NCBI RefSeq assembly: GCF_900129755.1
Contig: NZ_FQWT01000004.1
Coordinates: forward strand, 1 to 64,000
Direction: 5' to 3'
Source of the DNA: Chryseobacterium oranimense
GTDB lineage: Bacteria > Bacteroidota > Bacteroidia > Flavobacteriales > Weeksellaceae
Length of the DNA: 64,000 nt
A model generated the notes under the pieces. It saw nothing but the letters and a program-made list of their open reading frames with translations. It was not told the DNA's origin and did no database searches. The position numbers were made by a program, and so were the translations under genes. Shown here piece after piece: positions 1 through 12,496 of the stretch (the first letter of the stretch is position 1; each line of letters opens with the position of its first letter).

Positions 1-3
1 GGC

Positions 4-98
4 TCATATTTTTAGTGTGTAGTAAAACTAAAATATGAAAAAAGGAGCTACCTGAACAGATGGCTCCTTATATTTTTTTTGTCGGTTAGTAGTGATTT
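4..98. repeat. 95-bp direct repeat, copy A (hairpin plus terminator)
   Basis: Nearly identical to 1867-1960: one T-run length difference and one G/A change. The left part is an imperfect hairpin with arms TCATATTTTTAGT and ACTAAAATATGA. The right part has GGAGC/GCTCC arms followed by a T-run, which looks like a rho-independent terminator read rightward. The TAG stop of the acyltransferase at 48-653 lies inside the repeat, so the repeat supplies the last few codons of that protein. Confidence 0.85.
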
Positions 99-653
99 AA
101 TTTTATTATTAATGTATCCCATTGTAGCATTGGTATTGCTACTGATGCTTGCGGGATTGCCGATAACCACAGAATGATCAGGAATATCGAAATTCACATA
201 AGCGTTCGGTGCGATCAGAACATTGTTGCCAATTGATATTTTTCCCACCAACACCGCGTTTGGACCAATCCACACTTCGTCACCAATCACAGGAACGCCC
301 TCATTTTTTCTACGGTTGGCTTGGGCAATCGATACGCCTTGTGCGATGTTGCAGTTTTTTCCAATTTTCGCTTTTGGGTTGATCACCACGTTTCCCCAAT
401 GTCCCAAATAAAAACCCTCTCCAATTTGTGTTTCCGGATAGATTTGGAAGCCGTATTTAATTTGATGATGCCTTAAAACTAATCGCCAAAACATTCCTAA
501 TACAGAGTTTTTCCTATAATGCTGGGTTTTCCGTAAGATATAGATAAAATGCAAGTTGGGATTGATGCATTTTGCCCAAATTTGCAAAGGAGACAGCCAA
601 TTTCCGCTTTCCCTATAAAAATCCTTCTGGATACTAGTGTGATTACTTTGCAT
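48..653 (-). CDS. Hexapeptide-repeat acyltransferase (serine acetyltransferase-like), surface polysaccharide
   Basis: A 201-aa protein of the left-handed beta-helix acyltransferase superfamily. An N-terminal helical part of about 70 residues is followed by hexapeptide repeats at roughly residues 74-170 (IGEGFYLGHWG, IGKNCNIAQGVSI, IGDEVWIGPNAVLVG, IGNNVLIAPNAYV, then the end motif VVIGNPA). This arrangement is typical of the CysE/EpsE-like O-acetyltransferases found in exopolysaccharide and O-antigen clusters. The neighbouring glycosyltransferase remnant supports a polysaccharide role rather than cysteine synthesis, but that is inference. The C-terminal residues after about 190 are encoded by the direct repeat at 4-98, so the native tail may have been replaced. 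The start was chosen at the first ATG of the frame. Confidence 0.75.
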   Translation of the reverse strand: MQSNHTSIQKDFYRESGNWLSPLQIWAKCINPNLHFIYILRKTQHYRKNSVLGMFWRLVLRHHQIKYGFQIYPETQIGEGFYLGHWGNVVINPKAKIGKNCNIAQGVSIAQANRRKNEGVPVIGDEVWIGPNAVLVGKISIGNNVLIAPNAYVNFDIPDHSVVIGNPASISSNTNATMGYINNKIKSLLTDKKNIRSHLFR

Positions 654-662
654 AAGACAAAA

Positions 663-1219
663 TTAAAGATTATCGATGATTTTTTGAATGTGTTGCACAG
701 ATTTTTCGAGGGTAAATGGCATTTGGTAACCTTTCATATTTTCCAGGTATTTGTCGAAAGATTCTGGATTTTCAAGTGCTTTTTTCATTCCATCATAAAT
801 TCCCTGTTCGGAATTTTCTACAATAAGTCCTAATTTTCCGTTTTCCAGCATTTCGCTAACTCCCGAAACTTCGGTGGCGATAATTTTCTTTTTTAAAGTA
901 ATTGCTTCAAATAAAACCGTCGGAAAACCTTCATATCTCGAGCTCAGAACAAAGAAATCCGCATTCCGAAAGTGCGGATAAGGATTGCTTTTACCGGAAT
1001 ATCCTGAAGCCGGTTGGTGGTAATCATCTCGCCTTTGTTCAGGTAAATAACATTAATCCAATCTGGGATTTCACTCAGATATTTTCCGGAATACAAATTC
1101 AGTAGAAGATCAATTTCGTATTTATCGTCCGGAAGTTTTTTAAGAAAAGTCGCCAAAACTTTTTCTGCGCCGCCATGACGCAGAGAACCGATTCGGACGA
1201 GGATTTTCTTTTTTTTCAT
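663..1219 (-). pseudogene. Glycosyltransferase family 4 remnant, internally deleted
   Basis: Two pieces of one GT4-type glycosyltransferase lie in different frames. The N-terminal piece (1219 down to about 990) begins MKKKKILVRIGSLRHGGAEKV, the usual Rossmann start with a GGAEK motif. The C-terminal piece (about 1000 down to 663) carries the donor-site motif NPYPHFRNADFFVLSSRYEG and continues FPTVLFEA. GT4 enzymes are usually about 350-380 aa. Here only about 185 codons remain, so roughly half of the protein (the end of the acceptor domain and the start of the donor domain) is gone and the junction near 985-1005 is out of frame. Not expected to be functional. It belongs to the same decayed polysaccharide segment as the acyltransferases on either side. 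Confidence 0.85.
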
Positions 1220-1284
1220 GCTAAGGAAACCGTCTTTGCAAACTTAATTTTCATCAAATATACGTTTAGTCTTTTTTAAATTTT

Positions 1285-1292
1285 TATTTTTG
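1285..1292 (+). promoter_or_regulatory. Candidate -7 element (TATTTTTG) for the DUF4298 gene
   Basis: Matches the Bacteroidota consensus TAnnTTTG and ends 12 nt before the ATG at 1305. No good upstream TTG box was seen, so support is moderate. It argues against using the TTG at 1290 as a start codon. Confidence 0.45.
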
Positions 1293-1304
1293 AAGCAAAT
1301 TTTA

Positions 1305-1613
1305 ATGGAAATGGAAATTGATCTTGAAAGAATCACCGAGATGGAAAATGCCTTGAACCAAACCGACCAGTTGATCAAGGAAATGGAAAATCTATTGAAA
1401 AAATGGGAAGAGAACCTACCCAATTACCAAAAACTTTATAATTATTACTACAGCGAAGAATGGAGCAAAGATTTCGAAGCGGCGAACGAAAATAAATTTC
1501 CAGTCGGTTTCCCACACGGTGTTTTGAGTGAAGATGCGGCTTACAATACGTTGGGAGATTTCCGCGAACTGTCGCTAAGAATGTTGAAAATTGGCGTTAA
1601 GGGCGTGGAGTAG
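1305..1613 (+). CDS. DUF4298 family small protein
   Basis: About 102 aa, strongly helical and acidic in its N-terminal half (ENALNQTDQLIKEMENLLKKW), followed by YYYSEEWSKDFEA and a conserved-looking end VLSEDAAYNTLGDFREL. This is the pattern of the DUF4298 family, whose function is unknown. The ATG at 1305 is preferred over the in-frame TTG at 1290 because that TTG is part of a promoter-like TATTTTTG. A second Met two codons downstream is also possible. It is the only intact + strand gene inside the decayed polysaccharide segment, and its 3' end overlaps the acyltransferase remnant on the other strand by about 17 bp. Confidence 0.75.
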   Translation: MEMEIDLERITEMENALNQTDQLIKEMENLLKKWEENLPNYQKLYNYYYSEEWSKDFEAANENKFPVGFPHGVLSEDAAYNTLGDFRELSLRMLKIGVKGVE

Positions 1614-1866
1614 AATTTTTCACAGGTTTGTAGGTGTGCGGAAGATTTTTTTGGAGATAATCTTCGAGTGCTTTTCGGTTTTGTTCCAATTCTCGCGGAT
1701 ACATCACATTGTTCGTCAGCAATCGTTCGCCATATTCATCAATAGTACAAATGAATTTCGCGGGACTTCCAACATAATCCGAATTATCTGGAACAGAAGA
1801 ACTTACTACGCTTAAAGAACCGATAATACAGTTGTTTCCTATGGAAACTCCCGGCATGATAACACT
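1597..1866 (-). pseudogene. C-terminal fragment of a hexapeptide acyltransferase
   Basis: The reading frame encodes about 88 aa starting SVIMPGVSIGNNCIIGSLSV, a beta-helix hexapeptide run, followed by the usual end signature VGSPAKFICTIDEYGERLL. WcaF/maltose-acetyltransferase-like enzymes have about 90-100 more residues in front. Here the frame hits a TGA exactly at the edge of the 95-bp repeat copy B (1867), so the 5' part of the gene is missing and has been replaced by the repeat. There is no evident promoter. Treated as a truncated remnant created at the repeat boundary. Confidence 0.85.
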
Positions 1867-1960
1867 TCATATTTTTAGTGTGTAGTAAAACTAAAATATG
1901 AAAAAAGAAGCTACCTGAACAGATGGCTCCTTATATTTTTTTGTCGGTTAGTAGTGATTT
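1867..1960. repeat. 95-bp direct repeat, copy B
   Basis: 94 bp almost identical to 4-98 and in the same orientation. The terminator arm reads GAAGC instead of GGAGC, so its hairpin is weaker than that of copy A. Its left edge coincides with the truncation point of the acyltransferase remnant at 1597-1866. Confidence 0.85.
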
Positions 1961-2014
1961 TTTTTATGTAAATAGTTTGGCTTGTTTGAGGATAGCTTCT
2001 ATAAATACTTTTTA

Positions 2015-2062
2015 ACTATTTGTATTTCAAAATACTTCATATGAAAAAAACTAACAAATAGT
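2015..2062. promoter_or_regulatory. Inverted repeat upstream of the RteC-like gene
   Basis: ACTATTTGT at 2015-2023 and its complement ACAAATAGT at 2054-2062, with a second nested pair (GTATTT/AAATAC) between them. It ends 10 nt before the ATG at 2073. It could be an operator or an RNA hairpin; there is no direct evidence for either. Confidence 0.35.
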
Positions 2063-2072
2063 AGTTTACTAA

Positions 2073-2912
2073 ATGACATCTTCACTAAATCATATCATAT
2101 CGGAGATACAGCGAAAAGAAAATGCTATTTCGCTGTCTGCACCTAATACTATTGATGAAGCATATCAAATGACTATATACCTAAAAGAATATTTATGGTC
2201 AATAAGAGAAGACATTACAAAGCAAGGTTTTAAAAACCATTGGGAGGAGATCAATTTCTTTCGCAATATCAAGCCATATATTCTCTCCAAGCTTATTTAC
2301 CACAATAAGATATTTCGCATACAGACAGCTTGCCCTGTTGATGGAGGGAAAATGTATGCGAGTTATTTTTTGGAACAGTTGAAGGAATTAAAACAGGAAT
2401 ACAGGGAGCATATCTACAATTCAGATTTTTACAGATATTACCGTTCAGGAAGAACCGACCGTGATGAAACCTACTTTAGATTAGGTAATATTAATTTCCA
2501 CGATGGTTTGAATAGTTTTGTATTTGAAATTGACCCCCTGTTTTCAACTTATTATGATAACAAAGTGGCTCGGATAATAGCCAATGAACTACTCTATACC
2601 TACATTCTCCAAAAAATCAATGATGATGAAATGGCAGATTTTTCTGCGAGGGATATATCTGATAGCATCCTTTGGACGGATACCAAAAATGCCTTGATAG
2701 AACTGATTTATGCTCTTTACGCAAATAGCTCTCTTTCTGATGGTAAAATAGGAATACGCAAAATCAGTTTGGCTTTAGAAAGAATGTTTCAGATTTCTTT
2801 AGGAGATTTGCATCATTCTTTCCATCGAATGAAATATCGTGCAGGTTCCCGAACCGCATTTTTAGACCAACTGAAATCTTCTTTAGAAGAATATATGGAT
2901 AAAGATTTGTAA
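2073..2912 (+). CDS. rteC: RteC-like regulator (conjugative-transposon type)
   Basis: A 279-aa protein matching the RteC family in its central part: FFRNIKPYILSKLIYHNKIF, then CPVDGG, YYRSGRTDRDETYFRLG, and FEIDPLFSTYYDNKVARIIA. In Bacteroides CTnDOT, RteC is part of the tetracycline-responsive cascade that turns on excision. In flavobacteria, RteC homologues are often cargo or relics of such elements. No excision, mobilisation or tra genes are visible nearby, so this is either an orphan or the edge of an element. It lies 262 bp upstream of hsdM on the same strand, so an effect on the restriction locus is conceivable but unproven. An inverted repeat (2015-2062) sits just before the start. Confidence 0.8.
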   Translation: MTSSLNHIISEIQRKENAISLSAPNTIDEAYQMTIYLKEYLWSIREDITKQGFKNHWEEINFFRNIKPYILSKLIYHNKIFRIQTACPVDGGKMYASYFLEQLKELKQEYREHIYNSDFYRYYRSGRTDRDETYFRLGNINFHDGLNSFVFEIDPLFSTYYDNKVARIIANELLYTYILQKINDDEMADFSARDISDSILWTDTKNALIELIYALYANSSLSDGKIGIRKISLALERMFQISLGDLHHSFHRMKYRAGSRTAFLDQLKSSLEEYMDKDL

Positions 2913-3125
2913 ACGAATACTTCTAAGATAGCCTTGTCAAAAACAGATGAATAAAATGAAAGAAAAAAAAGTTCTTTAAATTATTATAGAAAGAAATAGA
3001 TGACTTCTCCTAGTATTACTTGTAATAAACGAATTTTTAAAATTTTCTAGACCAAATTTATCTATTCAAACAACCACCTTTTTTACAGCCTACATAATGT
3101 TTAGTAGCTAAAAGTTTACTATTTT

Positions 3126-3150
3126 AGTGGATTCTTAAGGATTAAAAATC
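3126..3150 (+). repeat. Imperfect direct repeat, left of the R-M locus
   Basis: AGTGGATTCTTAAGG followed by ATTAAAAATC resembles 12248-12272 (AGTAGGATTCATAAG, then AATCAAAAAT), about 20 of 25 positions with one gap. It lies 25 bp before hsdM. It could mark an insertion boundary of the restriction locus; weak evidence. Confidence 0.3.
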
Positions 3151-3174
3151 CCTAATCAAATAACGCTTATTTCA

Positions 3175-4725
3175 ATGTCAGAAGAACAGAAGAAAATATT
3201 AGAGCAACAGCTCTGGAATATAGCCAATACGTTACGTGGAAAAATGAATGCAGATGAATTCCGAGATTATATTTTGGGATTTATTTTTTATAAGTATTTG
3301 GCTGAAAAAATGGAAATCTATGCGAATTCCATTTTGGAAGAAGATCAAATCCAATTCAGAGATATCAAAGAAGATACGCCTAAAGGTTTAGAATATATTG
3401 GAGCTATTCGAGAAGAAGCTCTGGAAACATTGGGTTATTTTTTAAAGCCTTCTGAACTATTTAGCGAAATTACCAAAAGAGGTGATAACAATTTCATCCT
3501 TGAAGATTTACAAAAAATCCTGACCAATATCCAGCTCAGTACAATGGGAACACAAAGTGAAGAAGACTTTGAGGACTTGTTCTCTGATATGGATTTGAAT
3601 AGTAATAATCTGGGTAGAACTGCTGATGCTAGAAATACACTTATTGTAAAAGTTCTAAAGCATCTCGATGAAATTGACTTCAAATTGAATGATACAGAAT
3701 TGGATGTTTTAGGAGATGCTTATGAGTATTTGATCGGTCAGTTTGCCAGCGGTGCAGGAAAAAAAGCGGGAGAGTTTTATACGCCTCAAGAAGTATCCAA
3801 AATTCTTGCAAAAATTGTTACAACAGGTAAAAATCGTTTAAAATCGGTATATGACCCAACTTGTGGTTCAGGATCATTACTATTACGTGTTGCAAGAGAA
3901 GTAAAAGATGTCAATAATTTCTACGGACAAGAAATGAACCGTACAACGTACAATCTTGCTCGCATGAATATGATCTTGCATGGAGTGCATTATCGTCAGT
4001 TCGATATAAAACAAGAGGATACACTAGAACATCCACAGCATTTAAACGATATGCCATTTGAAGCAATTGTCGCAAATCCTCCTTTTTCAGCGAAATGGAG
4101 TGCCAATCCATTATTTTTAAATGATGACCGTTTTAGCCAATATGGAAAATTAGCTCCTTCAAGCAAAGCTGACTTTGCATTTGTGCAACACATGATTTAT
4201 CATTTGGCAGAGAATGGAACAATGGCTATTGTTCTGCCTCATGGTGTGTTGTTCCGTGGAGCATCAGAACTGCATATTCGTAAATACCTGATTGAACAGA
4301 AAAATTATTTGGATGCGGTCATAGGCTTACCTGCCAATATTTTCTACGGAACAAGTATACCAACTTGTATTCTGGTATTTAAAAAGTGTAAGGAAGATCC
4401 TGACAATATCTTATTTATTGATGCCAGTAAAGAATTCGAGAAAGTTAAGAACCAAAATATGTTACGGGAAGAACATATCGATAAGATTGTTGAAACCTAC
4501 CGTAACAGAACGACTATTGAAAAATACAGTCACTTAGCTACCCTAAAAGAAGTTGAAGAGAATGACTATAACCTCAACATTCCTCGCTACGTAGATACAT
4601 TTGAAGCCGAAGAAGAAATCGATATTCAATCCGTAATGCAGGAAATCAAATCTTTAGAAGCAAAACGAGCGCAACTGGACAAAGAGATTGATGTGTACTT
4701 CAAAGAATTGGGACTTGTTTTTTAA
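3175..4725 (+). CDS. hsdM: Type I restriction-modification methyltransferase subunit HsdM
   Basis: A 516-aa N6-adenine DNA methyltransferase subunit of a type I restriction-modification system. The N-terminal helical HsdM domain (residues 1-150, with LWNIANTLRGKMNADEFRDY) precedes the catalytic domain. The AdoMet-binding motif DPTCGSGS begins at about D227, and the catalytic NPPF starts at N301. HsdM pairs with HsdS to methylate host sites and adds HsdR for cleavage. The stop is 47 bp upstream of the expressed hsdS, so the two are probably co-transcribed. Length is normal for the family. The system's specificity depends on which hsdS arrangement sits downstream (see 4773-8333). Confidence 0.95.
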   Translation: MSEEQKKILEQQLWNIANTLRGKMNADEFRDYILGFIFYKYLAEKMEIYANSILEEDQIQFRDIKEDTPKGLEYIGAIREEALETLGYFLKPSELFSEITKRGDNNFILEDLQKILTNIQLSTMGTQSEEDFEDLFSDMDLNSNNLGRTADARNTLIVKVLKHLDEIDFKLNDTELDVLGDAYEYLIGQFASGAGKKAGEFYTPQEVSKILAKIVTTGKNRLKSVYDPTCGSGSLLLRVAREVKDVNNFYGQEMNRTTYNLARMNMILHGVHYRQFDIKQEDTLEHPQHLNDMPFEAIVANPPFSAKWSANPLFLNDDRFSQYGKLAPSSKADFAFVQHMIYHLAENGTMAIVLPHGVLFRGASELHIRKYLIEQKNYLDAVIGLPANIFYGTSIPTCILVFKKCKEDPDNILFIDASKEFEKVKNQNMLREEHIDKIVETYRNRTTIEKYSHLATLKEVEENDYNLNIPRYVDTFEAEEEIDIQSVMQEIKSLEAKRAQLDKEIDVYFKELGLVF

Positions 4726-4772
4726 TTTTTTACATCCTTAATGTTTTTACTAACGAAAATTGAATCATCGAG

Positions 4773-5972
4773 ATGATAAATAAAAAATTAAAAGTAGGTA
4801 ACGTTCCTAATTTGAGATTTCCTGAATTTACTGAGGAATGGGAAACTAAGAAGTTGGGGGAAGTGATGCACTTTAAAGTAACCAACTCCTTTTCTCGTGA
4901 AAATTTAAATTACGAAGTCGGTACGGTAAAAAATATCCATTACGGAGATATTCACACTAAATTTCAAACCTTATTTGACACTACTAAGGAAGTAGTCCCT
5001 TTCATAAATGAAGAAATAAATCTTGACAGGATTTCTGATGAAAATTATTGCAAAGAAGGAGATGTAATTTTTGCTGATGCTTCAGAAGATTTGAATGATG
5101 TGGGAAAAAGTATCGAAATTATAAATGTCAATAGCGAAAAATTATTATCAGGTTTACACACCTTATTAGGAAGACCAAAATCAAGTATTTTCCACTTGGG
5201 CTTTAATGGTTATTTATTCAAATCCAATTCTGTCAGAACCCAAATTCAAAAAGAATCCCAAGGGTCGAAGGTTTTAAGTATCAATACTGGAAGGATTTCA
5301 AAAATAGAATTATCATTTCCCTCCGTAAATGAGCAAGAAAGAATCACTATTTTATTGAGTTTGATGGATGAACGTATTCAAACCCAAAACAAAATAATTG
5401 AGGAGCTGAAGTTATTAAAGATTACGCTTCGCAATCAACTATACGAACAAATTCTTAATCAAGAAAATGAATATGTTCAAGTTAAGGATACTTTAAACTA
5501 TGAACAGCCAACTAAATATTTGGTTACAAATACAGATTATTCATCTGATATTTCGCTAATTCCAGTTCTAACTGCAAATAAAGCTTTTGTATTAGGATAT
5601 ACCGATGAAGAATTTGGTATTTATGACAAAGGTCAATGTATCATTTTCGATGATTTTACAATGGATATAAAGTTTGTTAATTTTATATTCAAAGTAAAAT
5701 CTTCAGCAATTAAAATACTGACAGCGAAACCAAATGTTAACCTAAAATTTATATTTGAGTATTTGTCATTTTTAAATCTATCATCAAATGAACACAAACG
5801 GCATTATATATCAGAAATTGAGCCTATGGAAATGCAATTACCAAATTATGTTCAACAAACATATGTTGCAGATTTTCTATCAAGTATTGACGATAAAATA
5901 AAAACTGAATTTGAAATTCATACGCTATTACTTAAGCAGAAACAATACTTGTTAGCTAATTTATTTATATAA
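4773..5972 (+). CDS. hsdS: Type I R-M specificity subunit HsdS, expressed copy
   Basis: A 399-aa specificity subunit with two target-recognition domains (TRDs). The first follows FPEFTEEWETKKLGE (about residues 17-31). The central conserved helix is ERIQTQNKIIEELK (about 199-212). The second TRD runs from about residue 230, and the C-terminal helix ends KQKQYLLANLFI. The start codon and the first ten codons lie outside the 56-bp inverted repeat that begins at 4803, so DNA inversion would replace everything after codon 10 while keeping this start. The 3' end overlaps the silent cassette on the opposite strand by 8 bp within a 48-bp palindrome. It is the only hsdS here with an ATG directly behind hsdM. 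Confidence 0.95.
   Translation: MINKKLKVGNVPNLRFPEFTEEWETKKLGEVMHFKVTNSFSRENLNYEVGTVKNIHYGDIHTKFQTLFDTTKEVVPFINEEINLDRISDENYCKEGDVIFADASEDLNDVGKSIEIINVNSEKLLSGLHTLLGRPKSSIFHLGFNGYLFKSNSVRTQIQKESQGSKVLSINTGRISKIELSFPSVNEQERITILLSLMDERIQTQNKIIEELKLLKITLRNQLYEQILNQENEYVQVKDTLNYEQPTKYLVTNTDYSSDISLIPVLTANKAFVLGYTDEEFGIYDKGQCIIFDDFTMDIKFVNFIFKVKSSAIKILTAKPNVNLKFIFEYLSFLNLSSNEHKRHYISEIEPMEMQLPNYVQQTYVADFLSSIDDKIKTEFEIHTLLLKQKQYLLANLFI
4803..4858 (+). repeat. Inverted repeat IR-left of the hsdS inversion
   Basis: 56 bp identical to the reverse complement of 8221-8276. It encodes VPNLRFPEFTEEWETKKLG near the HsdS N-terminus. Recombination with the right copy would invert 4803-8276 (about 3.5 kb) and fuse the fixed start codon to the other full-length hsdS body. 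Confidence 0.95.
5379..5401 (+). repeat. Central inverted repeat in hsdS
   Basis: 23 bp (CAAACCCAAAACAAAATAAT, then TGA) found inverted at 7726-7748. It encodes QTQNKII in the central helix between the two TRDs. Recombination here would exchange only the second TRD between the two full-length hsdS copies. Confidence 0.85.
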
Positions 5973-5992
5973 ATAAATTAGCTAACAAGTAT
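5945..5992. repeat. Perfect 48-bp palindrome at the hsdS / silent-cassette junction
   Basis: The sequence equals its own reverse complement over 48 bp, centred between 5968 and 5969. It encodes the shared C-terminus YLLANLFI on both strands, so the expressed hsdS (+) and the silent cassette (-) meet tail to tail, their stop codons overlapping. It also supplies a third recombination target and could form a cruciform or a bidirectional transcript end. Confidence 0.95.
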
Positions 5993-6597
5993 CTCTTTTG
6001 TTCTTCAAATTTATGCAATAGTTGGCTTTCAATATCAATCTTTGAATCTATAGATGAAAGGTAATCAGCAATCTTTTTTTGCTCTTCAATACAAGGTAAA
6101 TCAAATTTAATTCTCGCAAAATTGTCATAGAAAAGATAATCTCTTACTCCTCCTTCAACATTTTTTAAAACTTCTCTATTAAAAAAATCTGTCTTTAGAT
6201 ATTGATATAGAAAGTTATCATTTACGATGTTATCTGTTTTAAAACAAACATACAATGAACTGATAATAATATTCTCTAAGTTTTCACTATAGCCAATAGA
6301 TCCCACATTAATTCTTGCTGGATTATAGGCAAAGGTGTTCTTGTCAATTATTTTGTATAATTTAATATCGTAGCCTCTATCTTCGCTATCAACTCCCTCG
6401 AATTGCTCACTTTGCGGAACGAATCCTAATTTGTTATTTATAGAATAAACAGGAAGCTTTTCGTTATTTTTATTTCTCTTATTTATAAGAGTTGTAACCT
6501 CTCCCAACTTTTTAGTATTCCAATCTATATAATTTTTATTGTTTCCATTTTTAAATCTCAATTGACGTGAGAATAATTTCTTACTAATCGTAATCAC
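5965..6597 (-). pseudogene. Silent half-hsdS cassette 1 (second TRD only)
   Basis: About 210 codons encoding one recognition domain and the C-terminal helix. It starts ISKKLFSRQLRFKNG, then DWNTKKLGEVTTL, the usual opening of a second TRD, and ends EEQKRYLLANLFI. No first TRD is present, and the ATG at 6597 appears to be chance within what is normally an internal segment. The TRD differs from those of the expressed copy and of the long silent copy. It runs opposite to the expressed hsdS, the orientation needed for inversion to bring it into the expression site. Functionally a storage cassette rather than decay, because the frame is intact. Confidence 0.85.
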
Positions 6598-6601
6598 ATA
6601 G

Positions 6602-7153
6602 GAAATAAAATCCCTAATTAAAGGGCTTTGTCAGAAACTAATTCTAAATCAAGTACCAAATAAGAAAATAAATAATTGTGTTTCTTGCTATTCATCATCA
6701 TTAACAGAATCTGATGTAATTGATAAAAATGGAATTTACCCAGTTTATGGAGCTACAGGTGTTATTGCATTTACGGAAAATTCTCAAATTAATGAAGATG
6801 CGATTTTAATAATAAAAGATGGTTCTGGAGTTGGAAAGGTTCAATACGCATCGGATAAGTTTTCGGTTATTGGTACTTTGAACTATCTAACTGTAAAACC
6901 AGATGTTAATTTGAAGTATATTTTTTTCTGTTTAAAATTCTTCAACTTTGAGAAATACAAAGTTGGCTCTGGGATTCCGCATATCTATTTCAAAGATTAT
7001 GGAGAATCATTAATTTTTTGCCCATCACTTGATGAACAAGGTAATATTGAGAAATTACTATCATCACTTGATGAGAAAATAAATATTGAAAAGACGTTAT
7101 TAAAAAAATATGAAATACAAAAAAAGAACCTTTTACAGAACTTGTTTATATAA
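6602..7153 (+). pseudogene. Silent half-hsdS cassette 2 (second TRD only, no start)
   Basis: An open frame of about 183 codons from 6602 (SLIKGLCQKLILNQVPNKK) through a TRD (YPVYGATGVIAF, IIKDGSGVGKV, KVGSGIPHIYFKDYGE) to the C-terminal helix ending KKNLLQNLFI. The segment before the first Met at 6878 is clearly HsdS sequence, so the cassette has no start codon of its own. It lies head to head with cassette 1 (5 bp between them) and tail to tail with the long silent copy (8-bp overlap). TAATTAAAGGGCT at 6615-6627 recurs inverted at 7699-7711 in the long copy, a possible crossover site. A fourth distinct second-half TRD. Confidence 0.85.
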
Positions 7154-7725
7154 ATAGGCTCTGTAACAGATATTGTTTTTGACAATGGTATTTATCTAAA
7201 ATATTTTTTTCTGTTTGAATTTTTGTTTCAATAACAGAAAGAAAATTGGCAATGGTAGTTTGCTCATCTAAACAAGGAGATTTGATAGGCATAGATTGAA
7301 ACATTGGCAATCGTAATGACTTTACAGTAGAACCAACTGCTTTTGATTGTAAATATTTATCATCATTAAGTAAATGGTAATATAAATATTTTCCATTTAT
7401 TCCTCTGAAATCAAAAATCGCATATGTTCGTTGATGAAGATCAAATTTTCCTATAAAATATTTAGGGATAAATTCTTGCCCTTCTCCTGGAACAATTACT
7501 GCTTCTTTATCAAACAAAAATCTACTACTTGTTCTAATATCTTGTGACCTGTCAAAAAACGTATATTCTCCATTTAAAATAGAATCTTCTCGATTAGAAG
7601 AACCAGTTGTAATGGTTGATATTTCGCCTAACTTCTTCACCTCCCATTTCTCTGTGAATTTCTTAAACCTAATTTTCTGCGAATATATTTTTTCACTTAG
7701 CCCTTTAATTAAGGTTTCTAATTGT

Positions 7726-7748
7726 TCAATTATTTTGTTTTGGGTTTG
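7726..7748 (-). repeat. Central inverted repeat, right copy
   Basis: Reverse complement of 5379-5401 (23 bp), in the central helix of the silent full-length hsdS. Confidence 0.85.
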
Positions 7749-8220
7749 GATTCTTTCGTCAAGTAAAGCCAAAAATGAAGAAATTCTATTTTGCTCATTA
7801 AGCTTTGGTAGACTTAAAGAAAGAGAAGCTAGTTGACTTGAATATAAATGTACTACGGAAATACCTTGTGCTAAATTAGCTATTTCCATTTTCTTTTTAC
7901 TGTTTAGATAATAAGACAAAAAGATTCCATTATTCTTAGTCTTAATGATATTCAAATCACCTCCTAGTGCAATCCCAGATTTCAAGACACAGGAAGCTGT
8001 TGCAATATCGATTGTTGTTTCGCCAGAAGCAGGAATTATGACGTCATTCATTTCACTTAAGACTAAAGTCGATGTATTTACATTAGTCTTGGATTTTATT
8101 TCATTGATAACTTCTCTGTAATGTGTATAGAGTTCGCCATATCTTATACATTCAATAATTCCATTTTCTTCTATATCACTTTTAGAAATTCCCTTTCCCT
8201 TTGAAAACGTAGCAATATCT

Positions 8221-8276
8221 CCCAACTTCTTAGTTTCCCATTCCTCAGTAAATTCAGGAAATCTCAAATTAGGAAC
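8221..8276 (-). repeat. Inverted repeat IR-right of the hsdS inversion
   Basis: Perfect 56-bp reverse complement of 4803-4858. Beyond it the two copies diverge after a single shared TAA, which marks the outer limit of the invertible segment. Confidence 0.95.
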
Positions 8277-8351
8277 CTTAGTTCCAAATCCATCTGGGGG
8301 ATAAAGTGTCCTTAATTTCTTTCCTTTGAGATTTTAAAAAATTAAATTATA

Positions 8352-9278
8352 ATGAATGAACAAAAACAACTCTCAGAAGTTATCGATCTATGGAAAATAG
8401 ACAAAAAACAGTATGTAAAAAAGTCAAGTTTCTCAGCTTATACGCTATTGATTGAAAATCATCTACTGCCTAATTTCGGTAATAAAATTGCGATTGAAGA
8501 AGCTGATGTCCAAAGCTTTGTTTTTCAAAAGTTGGAAACAGGCTTAAGTCATAAAACAATTAAGGATATTTTAATTGTTCTGAAAATGATTTTGAAATTT
8601 GGAGCTAAAAACAAATGGTTGAAATATACCCCTTTTGATATTCAGTTTCCTACTGAACGAGAAAAGCACAATATTGAAGTGCTTACCAAGACTGATCAGA
8701 AAAAAATAATGAACTATATACAAGAGCATTTTACATTTAGGAATTTAGGTGTATATATATGTTTAAGTGCAGGAATGCGTATTGGGGAAGTATGTGCATT
8801 AACTTGGGAAGATATTGATACCGATAACGGAATTATCAGTGTTAACAGAACCATCCAGCGTATTTATATGATAGAAGATGGAACTCGTAGAACGGAATTG
8901 ATTCTGGATACCCCTAAAACTAAAAATTCTATTCGTGAAATTCCGATAAGTAAGGATTTATTAAGAATATTGAAACCATTTAAAAAGATTGTGAATCCTT
9001 TATTTTTTGTATTGACAAACGATGCTAAACCAACTGAACCCAGAACCTACAGAAGCTATTACAAAAATTTAATGAAAGAATTAAAAATGCCTGAACTTAA
9101 ATTTCACGGGTTAAGACATAGTTTCGCAACCCGATGTATTGAAAGTAATTGCGATTATAAAACGGTAAGTGTACTATTAGGGCATTCCAACATCAGCACT
9201 ACGTTAAATCTTTATGTACATCCTAATATGGAACAAAAGAAGAAAGCTATTGAGCAGATGTTTAAGGCTCTTAGATAA
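8352..9278 (+). CDS. Tyrosine recombinase, probable hsdS invertase
   Basis: A 308-aa phage-integrase-family recombinase. The N-terminal core-binding domain is at about residues 8-90. The catalytic residues are all present: R143 (SAGMRIGE), K189/K191 (TPKTKNS), H252-x-x-R255 (FHGLRHSF), H278 (LLGHSN) and nucleophile Y288 (TLNLYVHP). It lies directly between the right inverted repeat and hsdR on the hsdM strand. Recombinases in this position in Bacteroidota and streptococcal type I loci shuffle hsdS by site-specific inversion, so the same role is inferred here. A phage or transposon integrase is less likely because no other element genes are present. The start was chosen at the first ATG, which follows an A/T-rich stretch. 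Confidence 0.9.
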   Translation: MNEQKQLSEVIDLWKIDKKQYVKKSSFSAYTLLIENHLLPNFGNKIAIEEADVQSFVFQKLETGLSHKTIKDILIVLKMILKFGAKNKWLKYTPFDIQFPTEREKHNIEVLTKTDQKKIMNYIQEHFTFRNLGVYICLSAGMRIGEVCALTWEDIDTDNGIISVNRTIQRIYMIEDGTRRTELILDTPKTKNSIREIPISKDLLRILKPFKKIVNPLFFVLTNDAKPTEPRTYRSYYKNLMKELKMPELKFHGLRHSFATRCIESNCDYKTVSVLLGHSNISTTLNLYVHPNMEQKKKAIEQMFKALR

Positions 9279-9368
9279 GTTTTAGATTATGGATTAGGAG
9301 AACATTATATTTTGTTAAATTTGTACATAGGTAAAAAAAATAAGATAAACTCCTAATTCATAATTATT

Positions 9369-12236
9369 TTGAGCAAACAGTCCGAACAAATTCTAGAAGA
9401 GCAACTCATTGACCAATTACAGAAATTGGGATATAAATACGCTTTTATTGTTGATGAAATAGCTTTACTGGCAAACCTGAAAATACAATTAGAAAAGCAT
9501 AATCATATACAATTTAGCGATAGTGAATTTGAAAAAGTATTGAATATACTTAATAAAGGTTCTGTATTCGAAAAAGCCAAAGTATTGCGTGAAAAAAAAC
9601 ATCACATTATTCGGGATAATGGTGATAACCTGTATTTTGAATTTCTCAATGTAGAACATTGGTGTCAGAACGAATATCAGGTAACCAATCAAATTACACA
9701 AGAAGGGAAATATGAAAATCGTTATGATGTTACCTTACTGGTGAATGGATTGCCTTTAGTGCAAATCGAGCTGAAACGAAGAGGTTTGGAAATGAAAGAA
9801 GCATTCAACCAAATCAACCGTTATCAAAAACATAGCTTTGGTGCTGGAAAGGGTTTGTTTCATTTTGTACAATTATTCGTTATAAGTAACGGTGTAAATA
9901 CCAAATATTTCAGTAATTTTGGAACACATAAGCAGGAATATCTTCAGACGTTTCATTGGACAGACGAACAAAATAATCCATTAAATAATATTTTAAACGG
10001 CTTTACCGATTCTTTTTTAGAACCTTGTCATATCAGTAAAATGATCTGTAAGTATATCGTTCTGAATGAAACTGATAAACGTCTGATGGTACTTCGTCCA
10101 TATCAGTATTATGCGGTAGAAAGTATTATCAAAAAGGTAAAAGAAAACGAAATTCTGAATGGCTATAACATCGAAAAAAATGGCTACATCTGGCATACAA
10201 CTGGAAGTGGAAAAACCTTAACCAGTTTCAAAGCCAGTCAGATTCTATCCAAAATTCCAGCTATCAAAAAAGTGGTTTTTGTGGTAGATAGAAAAGATCT
10301 GGATTATCAAACCAACCAAGAGTATGATAAATTTAGTAAGGGCTCGGTAAGTTCTGCTACTAATACGGATGACCTCATTCGTAAATTAAACGACCCGAAT
10401 GTTCGCATCATCGTTACCACCATTCAAAAGCTAAATAATGCAATTTCAGGAAGAAACTTATCAAAAATGAAATCCATTCAGCACGAAAGGATGGTTTTTA
10501 TCTTTGACGAATGCCATCGTTCGCAATTTGGTGATACCCACAAAAACATCGTCAATTATTTTACCAATATTCAATTATTTGGCTTTACAGGCACTCCCAT
10601 TTTGGCAGAGAATGCAGATGGAGAAAAAACAACCGCAAGCTTGTTTGGAAAATGTCTGCATAAATATGTAATTACAGATGCCATACGTGATGAGAATGTA
10701 CTGAAGTTTTCTGTAGAATACATTCAGACTTTCAAACAGAAAGAACATATCATTGATTTAAAAGTAGAGCAAATCAATGAAACTGAAGTTTTTGAAGCTC
10801 CTGAACGAAAGGAAGCCATTGTAGATTACATCATTCAATACCACGATCAGAAAACCCAAAACAGGAAATTTTGTGCAATGATGTGTGTACAGGATATTGA
10901 TTCGGTCATTCAATACTATGAAATTTTCAAGCGTAAAAAACAAGAGGAACAGCACGATTTAAAAATAGCGACTATTTTTAGCTTTGCTCAGAATGAAGAG
11001 GAAATGGAAGATGCTGTTTATTCCCAATTAGGAATGGTTGCTGAACCACAAGCAGTTTACGGCTACAAACCTCATCGTAGAGAATTATTAGAAACGTATG
11101 TACAAGACTTTAATGAATTATTTGGAGAGAAACAGAACGTAAAAGATACCGAAGGATTTTACAACTATTACAATGCGGTAGCCAAAAAATCAAAGCAAAA
11201 CGAGACGGATATTTTGTTGGTAGCCAATATGTTTTTGACAGGATTTGATAGTAAGTATTTAAACACCTTATACGTTGATAAAAATCTGAAATATCATGGA
11301 TTGATACAAGCATTTAGCCGTACCAATCGTATTCTGGATAAGAATAAAACACAGGGAAATATTGTATGTTTCCGAAACCTAAAAGACAAGACAGACGAAG
11401 CCATCGCTTTATTCAGCAACAAAGAAGCAATTGATGAGATTATTGTAGAACCATACGAAGCGTATGTAGAAAAGTTTAACGAAGCCACGCAGAAATTATT
11501 AGAAATCGTTCCACAAGTAGTATCTGTTGACGGTTTATATTCGGAAGAAGATCAGCTACAATTTATTTTGGCTTTCCGTGCCATGATGCGTTTGCACAAA
11601 AAAATGAGCCATTACACAGAATTTACTTGGGATGATTTACAGATGGAGGAACAACTTTTTGCCGATTATACCAGTAAATATCTGGATTTAAAGGAAAAAC
11701 TCGATCCTACTGATCCGTCTAAAAAAGCGTCTATTCTTAATGATATAGATTTTGAATTGGAATTGATTAGGCGTGATACAATCAATGTAACTTACATACT
11801 TCAGTTATTGATTAAATTCAAGTCGAAACATAGTGCGAAAGACAAAGAAAGTATTGAAAAAGATATATTCAATTTACTGAACACCGAGGTCTCATTAAGA
11901 AGTAAAAGAGAATTGATTGAAAAATTTATTCAGGAAAGTTTACCACATATCGAAGATACGGATGCCATTCCAGAAGAGTTTGAAAAATTCTGGAATGTAG
12001 AGCAAGAAAAAGCACTTCAGGAACTAGTCAAAACAGAAAATCTTTCCGAAGAAAAAACAGAAAGACTGATAGAAAATTATTTGTTTACAGAACGTGAACC
12101 TTTGCGAAAAGAAATTTTAGATTTACGGAAAGAAGGAAGACCAAGTGTATTAAAATCTAAGGAAATCGGAGATCGTATTCTAAATAAAATCATTGGATTC
12201 GTAGATACTTTTGTTAATGGGATATCAGGAAATTAA
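9369..12236 (+). CDS. hsdR: Type I restriction endonuclease subunit HsdR
   Basis: A 955-aa motor/nuclease subunit. The N-terminal PD-(D/E)xK nuclease shows D120 and E134-x-K136 (YDVTLL, IELKRRG). The superfamily 2 translocase follows with Walker A GSGKT (K282), DECH at 380-383, and FTGTP. The C-terminal helical region fits HsdR, which binds the HsdM/HsdS core and cleaves after translocation. The start is unusual: an in-frame TAA at 9354-9356 is followed by no ATG, leaving TTG at 9369 as the best initiator (LSKQSEQILEEQL). It is separated from the recombinase by 90 bp and followed by a terminator hairpin at 12291. Confidence 0.93.
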   Translation: MSKQSEQILEEQLIDQLQKLGYKYAFIVDEIALLANLKIQLEKHNHIQFSDSEFEKVLNILNKGSVFEKAKVLREKKHHIIRDNGDNLYFEFLNVEHWCQNEYQVTNQITQEGKYENRYDVTLLVNGLPLVQIELKRRGLEMKEAFNQINRYQKHSFGAGKGLFHFVQLFVISNGVNTKYFSNFGTHKQEYLQTFHWTDEQNNPLNNILNGFTDSFLEPCHISKMICKYIVLNETDKRLMVLRPYQYYAVESIIKKVKENEILNGYNIEKNGYIWHTTGSGKTLTSFKASQILSKIPAIKKVVFVVDRKDLDYQTNQEYDKFSKGSVSSATNTDDLIRKLNDPNVRIIVTTIQKLNNAISGRNLSKMKSIQHERMVFIFDECHRSQFGDTHKNIVNYFTNIQLFGFTGTPILAENADGEKTTASLFGKCLHKYVITDAIRDENVLKFSVEYIQTFKQKEHIIDLKVEQINETEVFEAPERKEAIVDYIIQYHDQKTQNRKFCAMMCVQDIDSVIQYYEIFKRKKQEEQHDLKIATIFSFAQNEEEMEDAVYSQLGMVAEPQAVYGYKPHRRELLETYVQDFNELFGEKQNVKDTEGFYNYYNAVAKKSKQNETDILLVANMFLTGFDSKYLNTLYVDKNLKYHGLIQAFSRTNRILDKNKTQGNIVCFRNLKDKTDEAIALFSNKEAIDEIIVEPYEAYVEKFNEATQKLLEIVPQVVSVDGLYSEEDQLQFILAFRAMMRLHKKMSHYTEFTWDDLQMEEQLFADYTSKYLDLKEKLDPTDPSKKASILNDIDFELELIRRDTINVTYILQLLIKFKSKHSAKDKESIEKDIFNLLNTEVSLRSKRELIEKFIQESLPHIEDTDAIPEEFEKFWNVEQEKALQELVKTENLSEEKTERLIENYLFTEREPLRKEILDLRKEGRPSVLKSKEIGDRILNKIIGFVDTFVNGISGN

Positions 12237-12247
12237 TGTTTTATTCT

Positions 12248-12272
12248 AGTAGGATTCATAAGAATCAAAAAT
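12248..12272 (+). repeat. Imperfect direct repeat, right of the R-M locus
   Basis: Resembles 3126-3150 at about 20 of 25 positions. Together the two flank hsdM to hsdR. Weak evidence for an insertion boundary. Confidence 0.3.
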
Positions 12273-12290
12273 ATTTAAGAGCGATAAATA

Positions 12291-12325
12291 AAGGATAGGT
12301 TTTAATTTTCCTATCCTTCTATTTT
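12291..12325 (+). terminator. Rho-independent terminator after hsdR
   Basis: Perfect 9-bp stem AAGGATAGG / CCTATCCTT with a 10-nt A/T loop, followed by CTATTTTTG. It lies 55 bp after the hsdR stop. Confidence 0.8.
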
Positions 12326-12472
12326 TGTATATTTGCCTTGAGCTAACGGAAAGACGTTGAAAAGCAAAGCAGTAAGCACTGTTACCAAATCGTTACCTGA
12401 CTATCTTTGATAATCTTTATAAAAGCTTAGTATTCAACCTATACAGCTTTTTCCTGAAAACTTTAAAATAAA

Positions 12473-12496
12473 AAACCCCGTCCTGGGACGAGGTTT
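12473..12496 (-). terminator. Terminator for the lipoprotein gene
   Basis: On the minus strand, AAACCTCGTCC, a CA loop, and GGACGGGGTTT (one G-U pair) followed by a T-run. It is about 150 bp past the stop at 12647. Confidence 0.75.

What the first reader, a model, noticed from the sequence alone, without database searches (positions are those of the whole stretch)
4773..9278. Type I restriction locus with an invertible hsdS store and its own recombinase
Behind hsdM lies one expressed hsdS, then two half-size silent cassettes, then a full-length hsdS on the opposite strand, then a tyrosine recombinase. A perfect 56-bp inverted repeat (4803-4858 / 8221-8276) and a 23-bp central inverted repeat (5379-5401 / 7726-7748) provide crossover sites. 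Two first-half TRDs and four second-half TRDs are present, so up to eight specificities could be produced. Each switch would change genome-wide methylation and thus gene expression across the population (a phasevarion). The general principle is known in streptococci and Bacteroides; this cassette arrangement may be new for this lineage.
Basis: partly seen in the sequence, partly recalled or inferred. Interest (0 to 1): 0.85.

Follow-up and report, generated by a model that had tools for sequence, protein, structure and literature searches.

The report
Eight-way DNA-inversion switch, restriction enzyme
A bacterium of the Chryseobacterium group carries a restriction enzyme whose DNA-reading part can be rebuilt in eight ways by flipping four nested pieces of DNA, a known kind of switch whose flips can here be read by comparing related genomes.

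Summary
Behind hsdM lie one readable hsdS (x-a), two head-to-head half cassettes (b, c), a silent hsdS (y-d) and a tyrosine recombinase. The named 56-bp (R1) and 23-bp (R2) repeats alone give four proteins. The sites are nested, R1 > R2 > {P, Q}; all eight hsdS genes stay in frame. Three pairs of natural genomes show each inversion. The clearest is another species with the same 12-kb island, where R2 and P inversions explain the rearrangement with no substitution in 9.9 kb. The same four-cassette plan was found in 13 other distinct loci and 6 of 12 fetched Bacteroides-genus loci. An eight-way hsdS shufflon is published for B. fragilis NCTC 9343. So it is real, and a new member of a known kind. 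Less familiar: P and Q are unlike, which would let the store reshuffle without deleting cassettes (inference). Switching within one culture, the role of the recombinase, and effects on gene expression were not tested.

The parts
3175..4725 (+). hsdM, type I methyltransferase subunit
   Evidence: TIGR00497 475 bits over a cut-off of 243; N6_Mtase, HsdM_N
4773..5972 (+). readable hsdS (x-a): TRD1 x joined to TRD2 a; it has an ATG outside R1
4803..4858 (+). R1 left arm, 56 bp, inside the codons for VPNLRFPEFTEEWETKKLG
8221..8276 (-). R1 right arm
5379..5401 (+). R2 left arm, 23 bp, between TRD1 and TRD2
   Evidence: closely related R2 copies in relatives
7726..7748 (-). R2 right arm
5402..5426 (+). 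P linker ending in outer P core GATTACG (5420-5426)
6589..6595 (-). inner P core (GATTACG on - strand), head of cassette b; the only other copy between 4773 and 8276
   Evidence: natural recombinants
5427..5972 (+). TRD2 cassette a
   Evidence: no Methylase_S match of its own
5965..6588 (-). TRD2 half cassette b (silent)
   Evidence: Methylase_S 50 bits; joined to y in L116
5945..5992 (+). 48-bp perfect palindrome where the tails of a and b meet and overlap at the stop codons
6596..6614 (.). inner spacer between the heads of b and c
   Evidence: same spacer, but for one base (C or T), in L116, L117, L118, L036, L039, L056
6615..6627 (+). inner Q core TAATTAAAGGGCT, head of cassette c
6628..7153 (+). 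TRD2 half cassette c (silent)
   Evidence: Methylase_S 56 bits; in the full-length silent hsdS of L036 and L039
7699..7725 (-). Q linker with outer Q core (7699-7711)
7146..7698 (-). TRD2 cassette d of the silent gene
   Evidence: joined to x in L116
7726..8276 (-). TRD1 y of the silent gene (no ATG in the 69 nt upstream in frame, which hold a stop)
   Evidence: at the expressed end in L118
8352..9278 (+). tyrosine recombinase; residues R143, K189/K191, H252, R255, H278, Y288 fit the catalytic set as I recall it
   Evidence: Phage_integrase 103 bits; residues located
9369..12236 (+). hsdR, restriction subunit, open frame
   Evidence: TIGR00348 490 bits over a cut-off of 285

Best explanation
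[quoted passage not shown] The readable hsdS frame starts at 4773. The recombinase encoded next door flips four nested segments. R1 swaps the two TRD1s (x, y) together with everything behind them. R2 swaps the a/b block against the c/d block. P swaps a with b. Q swaps c with d. Two TRD1s times four TRD2s give eight in-frame HsdS proteins from 16 arrangements. P and Q differ in sequence, so each core has one partner in the locus, and that partner is inverted; flips would then reshuffle and not delete. Shown here: the sites, the frames, and that each of the four inversions separates natural genomes. Inferred: that the adjacent tyrosine recombinase does it (very likely for the 7-bp and 13-bp sites; R1 could also use homologous recombination), that it goes on in growing cultures, that unlike cores protect against deletion, and that each protein gives a different methylation and restriction specificity.
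For:: inverting the window in silico at R2 and then at P gives a sequence collinear with L116 (genome G052) over window 2501-12396 with 0 substitutions and 4 gap bases, apart from an insertion in cassette c. R2 alone and P alone do not; elsewhere G052 matches the window at about 79% (one 6-kb probe), so this is another species sharing a nearly identical stretch of 12.5 kb. L117 with R1 and P inverted becomes collinear with L118 over 6.5 kb (6 substitutions, 9 gap bases); as is, R1 alone, P alone and R1+R2+P do not; the R2-to-R2 part of L036 with R2 and Q inverted becomes collinear with L056 over all 2445 bases (29 substitutions, no gap); 8 of 8 combinations are open, 378-426 codons. GATTACG occurs exactly twice, and the Q 13-mer exactly twice, in 4773-8276, each pair inverted; in 173 genomes of the genus, 17 places spell TQNKIIE; the 12 with the exact R2 spelling lie in 7 genomes, all recombinase-bearing; the other 5 use five other spellings (whether those are hsdS was not checked); contigs end within 250 bp upstream of the recombinase in 20 of 80 loci against 1 of 80 downstream; in 16 of those 20 the end lies at or near R1 (11 by motif search, 5 by eye).
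Against: No reads were available, so switching within one culture is not shown. The window's own assembly runs through the locus in one arrangement. No test ties the recombinase to any site. In pneumococcus the local recombinase PsrA drives only the 15-bp repeat and not the two longer ones (PMC4948785, passages). P is too short for a blind repeat search to single it out in the window: one search returned other matches of 8-9 bp. Of 20 four-cassette loci searched that way, P came out as the longest inverted match in 12. Direct matches to the linkers of 7-14 bp also exist, so length alone does not set the sites apart. The exact R2 spelling is in only 7 of the 35 recombinase-bearing genomes of the genus; others have variants such as ACCCAAAAGAAAATAATTGA. 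Two loci with the recombinase and 5-8 kb upstream, L096 and L110, show no hsdS match. Contig ends at repeats can also arise from assembly alone.
Confidence: 0.92

Rival explanations
1. The arrangements differ because of rare homologous recombination between the repeats over evolutionary time. The recombinase is incidental, and the locus is fixed within a strain.
For: R1 is 56 bp, long enough for homologous recombination (general knowledge). TRD alleles have also moved between P-type and Q-type heads (TRD d sits behind a P head in L041), which looks like ordinary homologous exchange. The window assembly shows a single state.
Against: P shares only 7 bp (GATTACG) between partners, and both reciprocal products are present in L116. 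Two inversions with no substitution in 9.9 kb. The recombinase is kept at 68-99% identity in the 80 loci kept, and three box motifs around catalytic residues were found in 109 of 109 copies longer than 295 aa (of 110 loci, duplicates included; the tyrosine itself was not tested across loci).
Confidence: 0.06
2. A phasevarion: switching specificity mainly serves to change gene expression across the population. (This is about purpose and does not exclude the best explanation.)
For: Shown for pneumococcal hsdS inversion and colony phase (PMC4948785, passages). PMC7394358 (passages) says that wherever a methyltransferase was shown to phase vary it also made up a phasevarion.
Against: Nothing in this locus bears on gene expression. 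HsdR is open and adjacent, so varying phage restriction explains it equally well. PMC8287963 (listing and start of abstract) reports that three non-phase-variable type I systems do not influence gene regulation in E. coli.
Confidence: 0.4
3. A decaying cassette store in which most silent TRDs are no longer used.
For: Cassette c in G052 is split by an insertion whose two genes I read as IS21-like istA/istB (by eye). The inner spacer of L044 holds about 1 kb of extra DNA. In L117 several hsdS pieces, b and c among them, have broken frames, perhaps through sequencing errors.
Against: In the window all four TRD2s and both TRD1s are open and in frame in every combination. b sits in a full-length gene in 5 relatives and c in 2.
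Confidence: 0.05

Closest known systems
Bacteroides fragilis NCTC 9343 hsdS shufflon BB (BF1839-1842)
   Same: Eight HsdS combinations, four sets of inverted repeats, tyrosine integrase next to the last hsdS (PMC3090145, passages). Locus L169, from an unnamed Bacteroides-genus genome with a 5,205,140-bp contig (from memory the size of the NCTC 9343 chromosome), shows the same order: full +, half -, half +, full -, recombinase (72% identical). Its repeats are R1-like 47 bp, R2 29 bp, Q-like 20 bp and P-like 16 bp.
   Different: Different TRDs and host; P is only 7 bp here. The published repeat matches R2 of L169 at 33 and 32 of 38 bases, not exactly, which counts against L169 being NCTC 9343 unless the printed repeat is the 638R version; the paper gives 32/38 between the two strains. 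The original description (Cerdeno-Tarraga 2005) was not available to read.
Pneumococcal SpnD39III / Spn556II (cod locus) with PsrA
   Same: hsdS inversions at repeats of different length, with a local tyrosine recombinase (PMC4948785, passages).
   Different: Three repeat pairs (15, 298 and 85 bp); six alternate HsdS proteins (PMC7394358, passages). PsrA drives only the 15-bp pair. The passage on form S9 implies that psrA lies among the hsdS genes, not outside them as here.
Inverton group 145 of gut bacteria (PMC11892184)
   Same: Inversions overlapping restriction S-subunit genes, with tyrosine recombinase, relaxase and MobC nearby (passages). Relaxase and MobC genes also lie some kilobases upstream of the G052 copy.
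   Different: Gut species. The sequence of group 145 was not compared.

Membership tests
[quoted passage not shown]
[quoted passage not shown]
[quoted passage not shown]
   R1 and R2
[quoted passage not shown]
[quoted passage not shown]
   no reads; contig ends are only indirect
[quoted passage not shown]
   needs long-read methylome data
Bacteroides hsdS shufflon (shufflon BB type) | Order full +, half -, half +, full -, recombinase | tested here: met
   window; L169 and five other Bacteroides-genus loci, 6 of 12 fetched. That the published shufflon has this order was not read in a paper
Bacteroides hsdS shufflon (shufflon BB type) | Four inverted site pairs giving eight HsdS | tested here: met
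   published count in PMC3090145
Bacteroides hsdS shufflon (shufflon BB type) | Related recombinase and conserved R2 repeat | tested here: inconclusive
   L169 recombinase 72% identical, shared ACCCAAAACAAAAT; but L169 is only tentatively NCTC 9343, and the printed repeat differs from it at 5-6 of 38 bases
Phasevarion | Switching changes expression of many genes | not testable with these tools
   no expression data

The most novel reading that the evidence does not exclude
The four-cassette hsdS shufflons of Bacteroidota form one phylum-wide, inversion-only recombination code. One recombinase family serves four nested site pairs. The two inner pairs (P and Q) are kept unlike in sequence, while the two copies within a pair are kept alike, so that matching cores are never direct repeats and the cassette store is not deleted. 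Whole islands carrying the switch move between species and reshuffle before more than a few point mutations accumulate.
Probability: 0.5. Interest if true: 0.62.

Novelty: new member of a known kind. Interest (0 to 1): 0.48.

Why it matters
The locus gives crossover sites narrowed to 7-23 bases (56 for R1) and pairs of natural genomes that differ by known flips, so recombinase and site can be tested directly. A system that shuffles specificity without losing cassettes, and that has moved between species, bears on how bacteria vary phage defence within a clone. The idea that unlike cores protect against deletion is simple, testable and useful for building memory switches in laboratory strains.

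Tried and rejected
A four-way switch from R1 and R2 only: rejected, because b and c occupy full-length genes in relatives.

P found by repeat search: failed in the window. A blind longest-match search returned other matches of 8-9 bp. Over the 20 four-cassette loci P came out as the longest inverted match in 12 (7 of 14, 5 of 6); partners of 16 bases or more were found for Q in 14 of 20 and for P in 4 of 20. The same searches gave direct matches of 7-14 bp (longest: 14 in L117), mostly away from the cores; in L172 the near-palindromic Q gives a direct match of 12.

Finding the published B. fragilis repeat: 0 of 2 genomes (up to 3 mismatches) and 0 of 158 (up to 1 mismatch). L169 came from a protein search in the same 158 genomes (34 of 158 matched at 1e-60), of which 12 loci were fetched. 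The closest copy of the published repeat in them was in L180 (2 mismatches).

A common arm motif shared by R1, R2, P and Q: looked for by eye only, nothing convincing.

Promoters: the sigma-70-type scan gave 37 sites against 33.7 expected, no use; Bacteroidota promoters differ (recalled).

Rows dropped: 12 loci that I took for duplicates from the second collection were left out, L092 was left out as a copy of L089. The P/Q score thresholds were chosen after seeing the sequences, so the Fisher value is descriptive. The 42 other loci are mostly pairs of full-length hsdS, but not all (L040 and L074 have further pieces). One search, for Chryseobacterium with hsdS and inversion, returned one review, which I did not read.

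Full report
OBSERVATION. ORFs and Pfam/NCBIfam matches give hsdM, a readable hsdS, two half-length hsdS cassettes, a full-length hsdS on the other strand, a tyrosine recombinase, and hsdR. The 56-bp (R1) and 23-bp (R2) inverted repeats are perfect. The window starts at the end of contig C9. In the whole genome, all five Methylase_S matches lie in this locus.

NAMES. TRD1: x (4803-5401) and y (7726-8276, minus). TRD2: a (5427-5972), b (5965-6588, minus), c (6628-7153), d (7146-7698, minus). The order is x-a> <b c> <d-y, recombinase. Amino-acid identities among the six run from 21 to 38%. The first gene has an ATG outside R1; the 69 nt upstream of y in frame have a stop and no ATG.

TWO MORE SITES. 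R1 and R2 can only give xa, xd, ya and yd. Comparison with relatives showed how b and c get in. After R2 the gene continues with one of two linkers. The P linker ends in GATTACG and is followed by a or b. The Q linker ends in TAATTAAAGGGCT and is followed by c or d. Between the heads of b and c lies a spacer with one P core and one Q core. In 4773-8276 GATTACG occurs twice and the Q 13-mer twice, inverted each time. Hence the nesting R1 > R2 > {P, Q}, 16 arrangements and 8 proteins, all eight in frame at 378-426 codons.

NATURAL EXPERIMENTS. (i) G052 (L116) shares window 1-12475, outside the shuffled part, at 99.9-100%, while a 6-kb probe from window 30000-36000 matches G052 at about 79%. So the stretch moved between species recently. 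Its order is x-d> <c a> <b-y. Inverting the window at R2 and P reproduces it with 0 substitutions and 4 gap bases over window 2501-12396; R2 alone or P alone does not. A few differences lie outside that part (1959 of 1961 identical in 1-1961; 674 of 675 in 11801-12475). The other change is an insertion in c, whose flanks overlap by 5 bp, with two genes that I read as IS21-type istA/istB (by eye). (ii) L117 to L118: R1 and P, 6.5 kb, 6 substitutions, 9 gap bases. (iii) L036 (Flavobacteriaceae PS02336) to L056 (Myroides phaeus), R2-to-R2 segment: R2 and Q, 2445 of 2445 bases aligned, 29 substitutions; with Q alone the segment matches in reverse, so R2 is judged by its orientation within the locus. 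P was needed in two pairs, R2 in two, R1 in one and Q in one.

HOW WIDESPREAD. The recombinase is in 35 of 173 genomes of the genus, the window's own included, at E of 1e-30 or better. In genome contigs 211 stretches encode relatives, of which the best 80 were kept. Of 110 loci laid out (at least 12 of them duplicates between the collections, and many cut by contig ends), 14 distinct ones, window included, have four cassettes: L116, L117, L118, L036, Myroides L039 and L056, Sphingobacterium L044, Epilithonimonas L041, a Bacteroidetes MAG L075, Dysgonomonas L081, L089, L106 and L107. In the genus of a Bacteroides MAG (G173), 34 of 158 genomes matched the recombinase at 1e-60; of 12 loci fetched, 6 have four cassettes, 3 have two full-length hsdS, 2 are cut by contig ends and 1 shows no hsdS. 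L096 and L110 hold the recombinase with 5-8 kb upstream but no hsdS match.

UNLIKE CORES. Among four-cassette loci, 13 of 14 have one P and one Q linker by my score, and the 14th (L089) has a Q and a diverged P-like linker. Among 42 other loci 9 have P and Q, 6 Q and Q, 2 P and P, and 25 include an unclassified linker. All 6 Bacteroides-genus four-cassette loci pair a P-like with a Q-like linker, read by eye; so does the two-gene locus L177, while L170 and L174 are Q and Q. The core changes between lineages (GATTACG, GAATACG, GAGTACG, GACTGCAC...; GGGCT, GGACT, GGGAT), but the two copies inside a locus agree for P in the 14 loci (by eye) and for Q over 9 bases or more; in L044, whose spacer holds extra DNA, only TAAAGGGCT is shared. 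If all heads shared one core, the heads of a and c, and of b and d, would be direct repeats and recombination would delete cassettes. Unlike cores avoid that. This is my inference; direct matches of 7-14 bp to the linkers exist outside this scheme.

IS IT STILL FLIPPING? Contigs end within 250 bp upstream of the recombinase in 20 of 80 loci, against 1 of 80 downstream (Fisher 6e-6). In 11 of these 20 an R1 match lies within 122 bp of the contig end, in 5 more the contig starts inside R1 (by eye), and in 4 it does not or is unclear. L052, L059, L078 and L113 end within 40 bp of R2. R2 is about 20 bp there; if k127 in the name of the L052 contig is its word size, a static repeat of that length should not break it. 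This fits mixed orientations in cultures or samples but is indirect. 39 of 80 loci have no upstream contig end within 8 kb, and the window's own assembly is unbroken.

DNA-LEVEL CONSTRAINT ON R2. In 173 genomes of the genus, 17 places spell TQNKIIE. The 12 with ACCCAAAACAAAATAATTGA are in 7 recombinase-bearing genomes; the 5 others have five other spellings and were not checked to be hsdS. The remaining recombinase-bearing genomes have variant R2 copies, such as ACCCAAAAGAAAATAATTGA, or were not resolved. One of the 12 (G157, C74) lies on a contig that ends 100 bp beyond R2, while the contig with the recombinase (C107) starts 6 bp from R2.

COMPARISON. PMC3090145 (passages) describes the NCTC 9343 shufflon: eight HsdS, four inverted-repeat sets, adjacent tyrosine integrase. 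L169 fits that count, with repeats of 47, 29, 20 and 16 bp. That it is NCTC 9343 rests on my memory of the chromosome size, and the printed repeat differs from it at 5 and 6 of 38 bases, so this is tentative. PMC7394358 (passages) lists B. fragilis among REBASE hits and has no occurrence of Chryseobacterium in its main text; its search kept only repeats longer than those shown before to work (passage cut there), so P and Q would probably escape it. PMC11892184 (passages) ties S-subunit invertons to relaxase and MobC genes, which also lie in the G052 flank. PMC4948785 (passages) shows that a local recombinase may drive only the shortest site.

VERDICT. Real, rearranged in recent evolution, and a new member of a known kind. 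Confidence that it is an eight-way inversion switch: 0.92. That switching acts as a phasevarion: open.

Noticed in passing
window 1-12475; L116, L162, L163: This stretch, outside the shuffled part, is 99.9-100% identical in G052, a different species (about 79% at one probe elsewhere). RteC (2073-2912) lies in it, and Relaxase and MobC genes lie some kilobases beyond it in G052: perhaps part of a mobile element.
   Followed up: partly
L116 4145-6707: Insertion with genes that look like IS21-type istA/istB inside cassette c of G052.
   Followed up: partly
L044, about -2843 to -1792 from the recombinase: About 1 kb of extra DNA with an ORF that looks Fic-like by eye, between the two half cassettes in Sphingobacterium multivorum.
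   Followed up: no
L081, L106, L041: TRD a falls in one single-linkage DNA cluster (80%) with TRDs of Dysgonomonas, and TRD d clusters with one behind a P-type head in Epilithonimonas bovis: TRDs move between genera and between P and Q groups.
   Followed up: partly
window 5945-5992: 48-bp perfect palindrome formed by the identical tails of a and b; terminator-like on both strands.
   Followed up: no
L054, L094: Contigs binned as Ignatzschineria and Azovibrio MAGs carry this recombinase and hsdR; probably binning errors.
   Followed up: no
G157:C107 and G157:C74: The locus appears split at R2 over two contigs in one genome, a possible trace of mixed orientations.
   Followed up: partly
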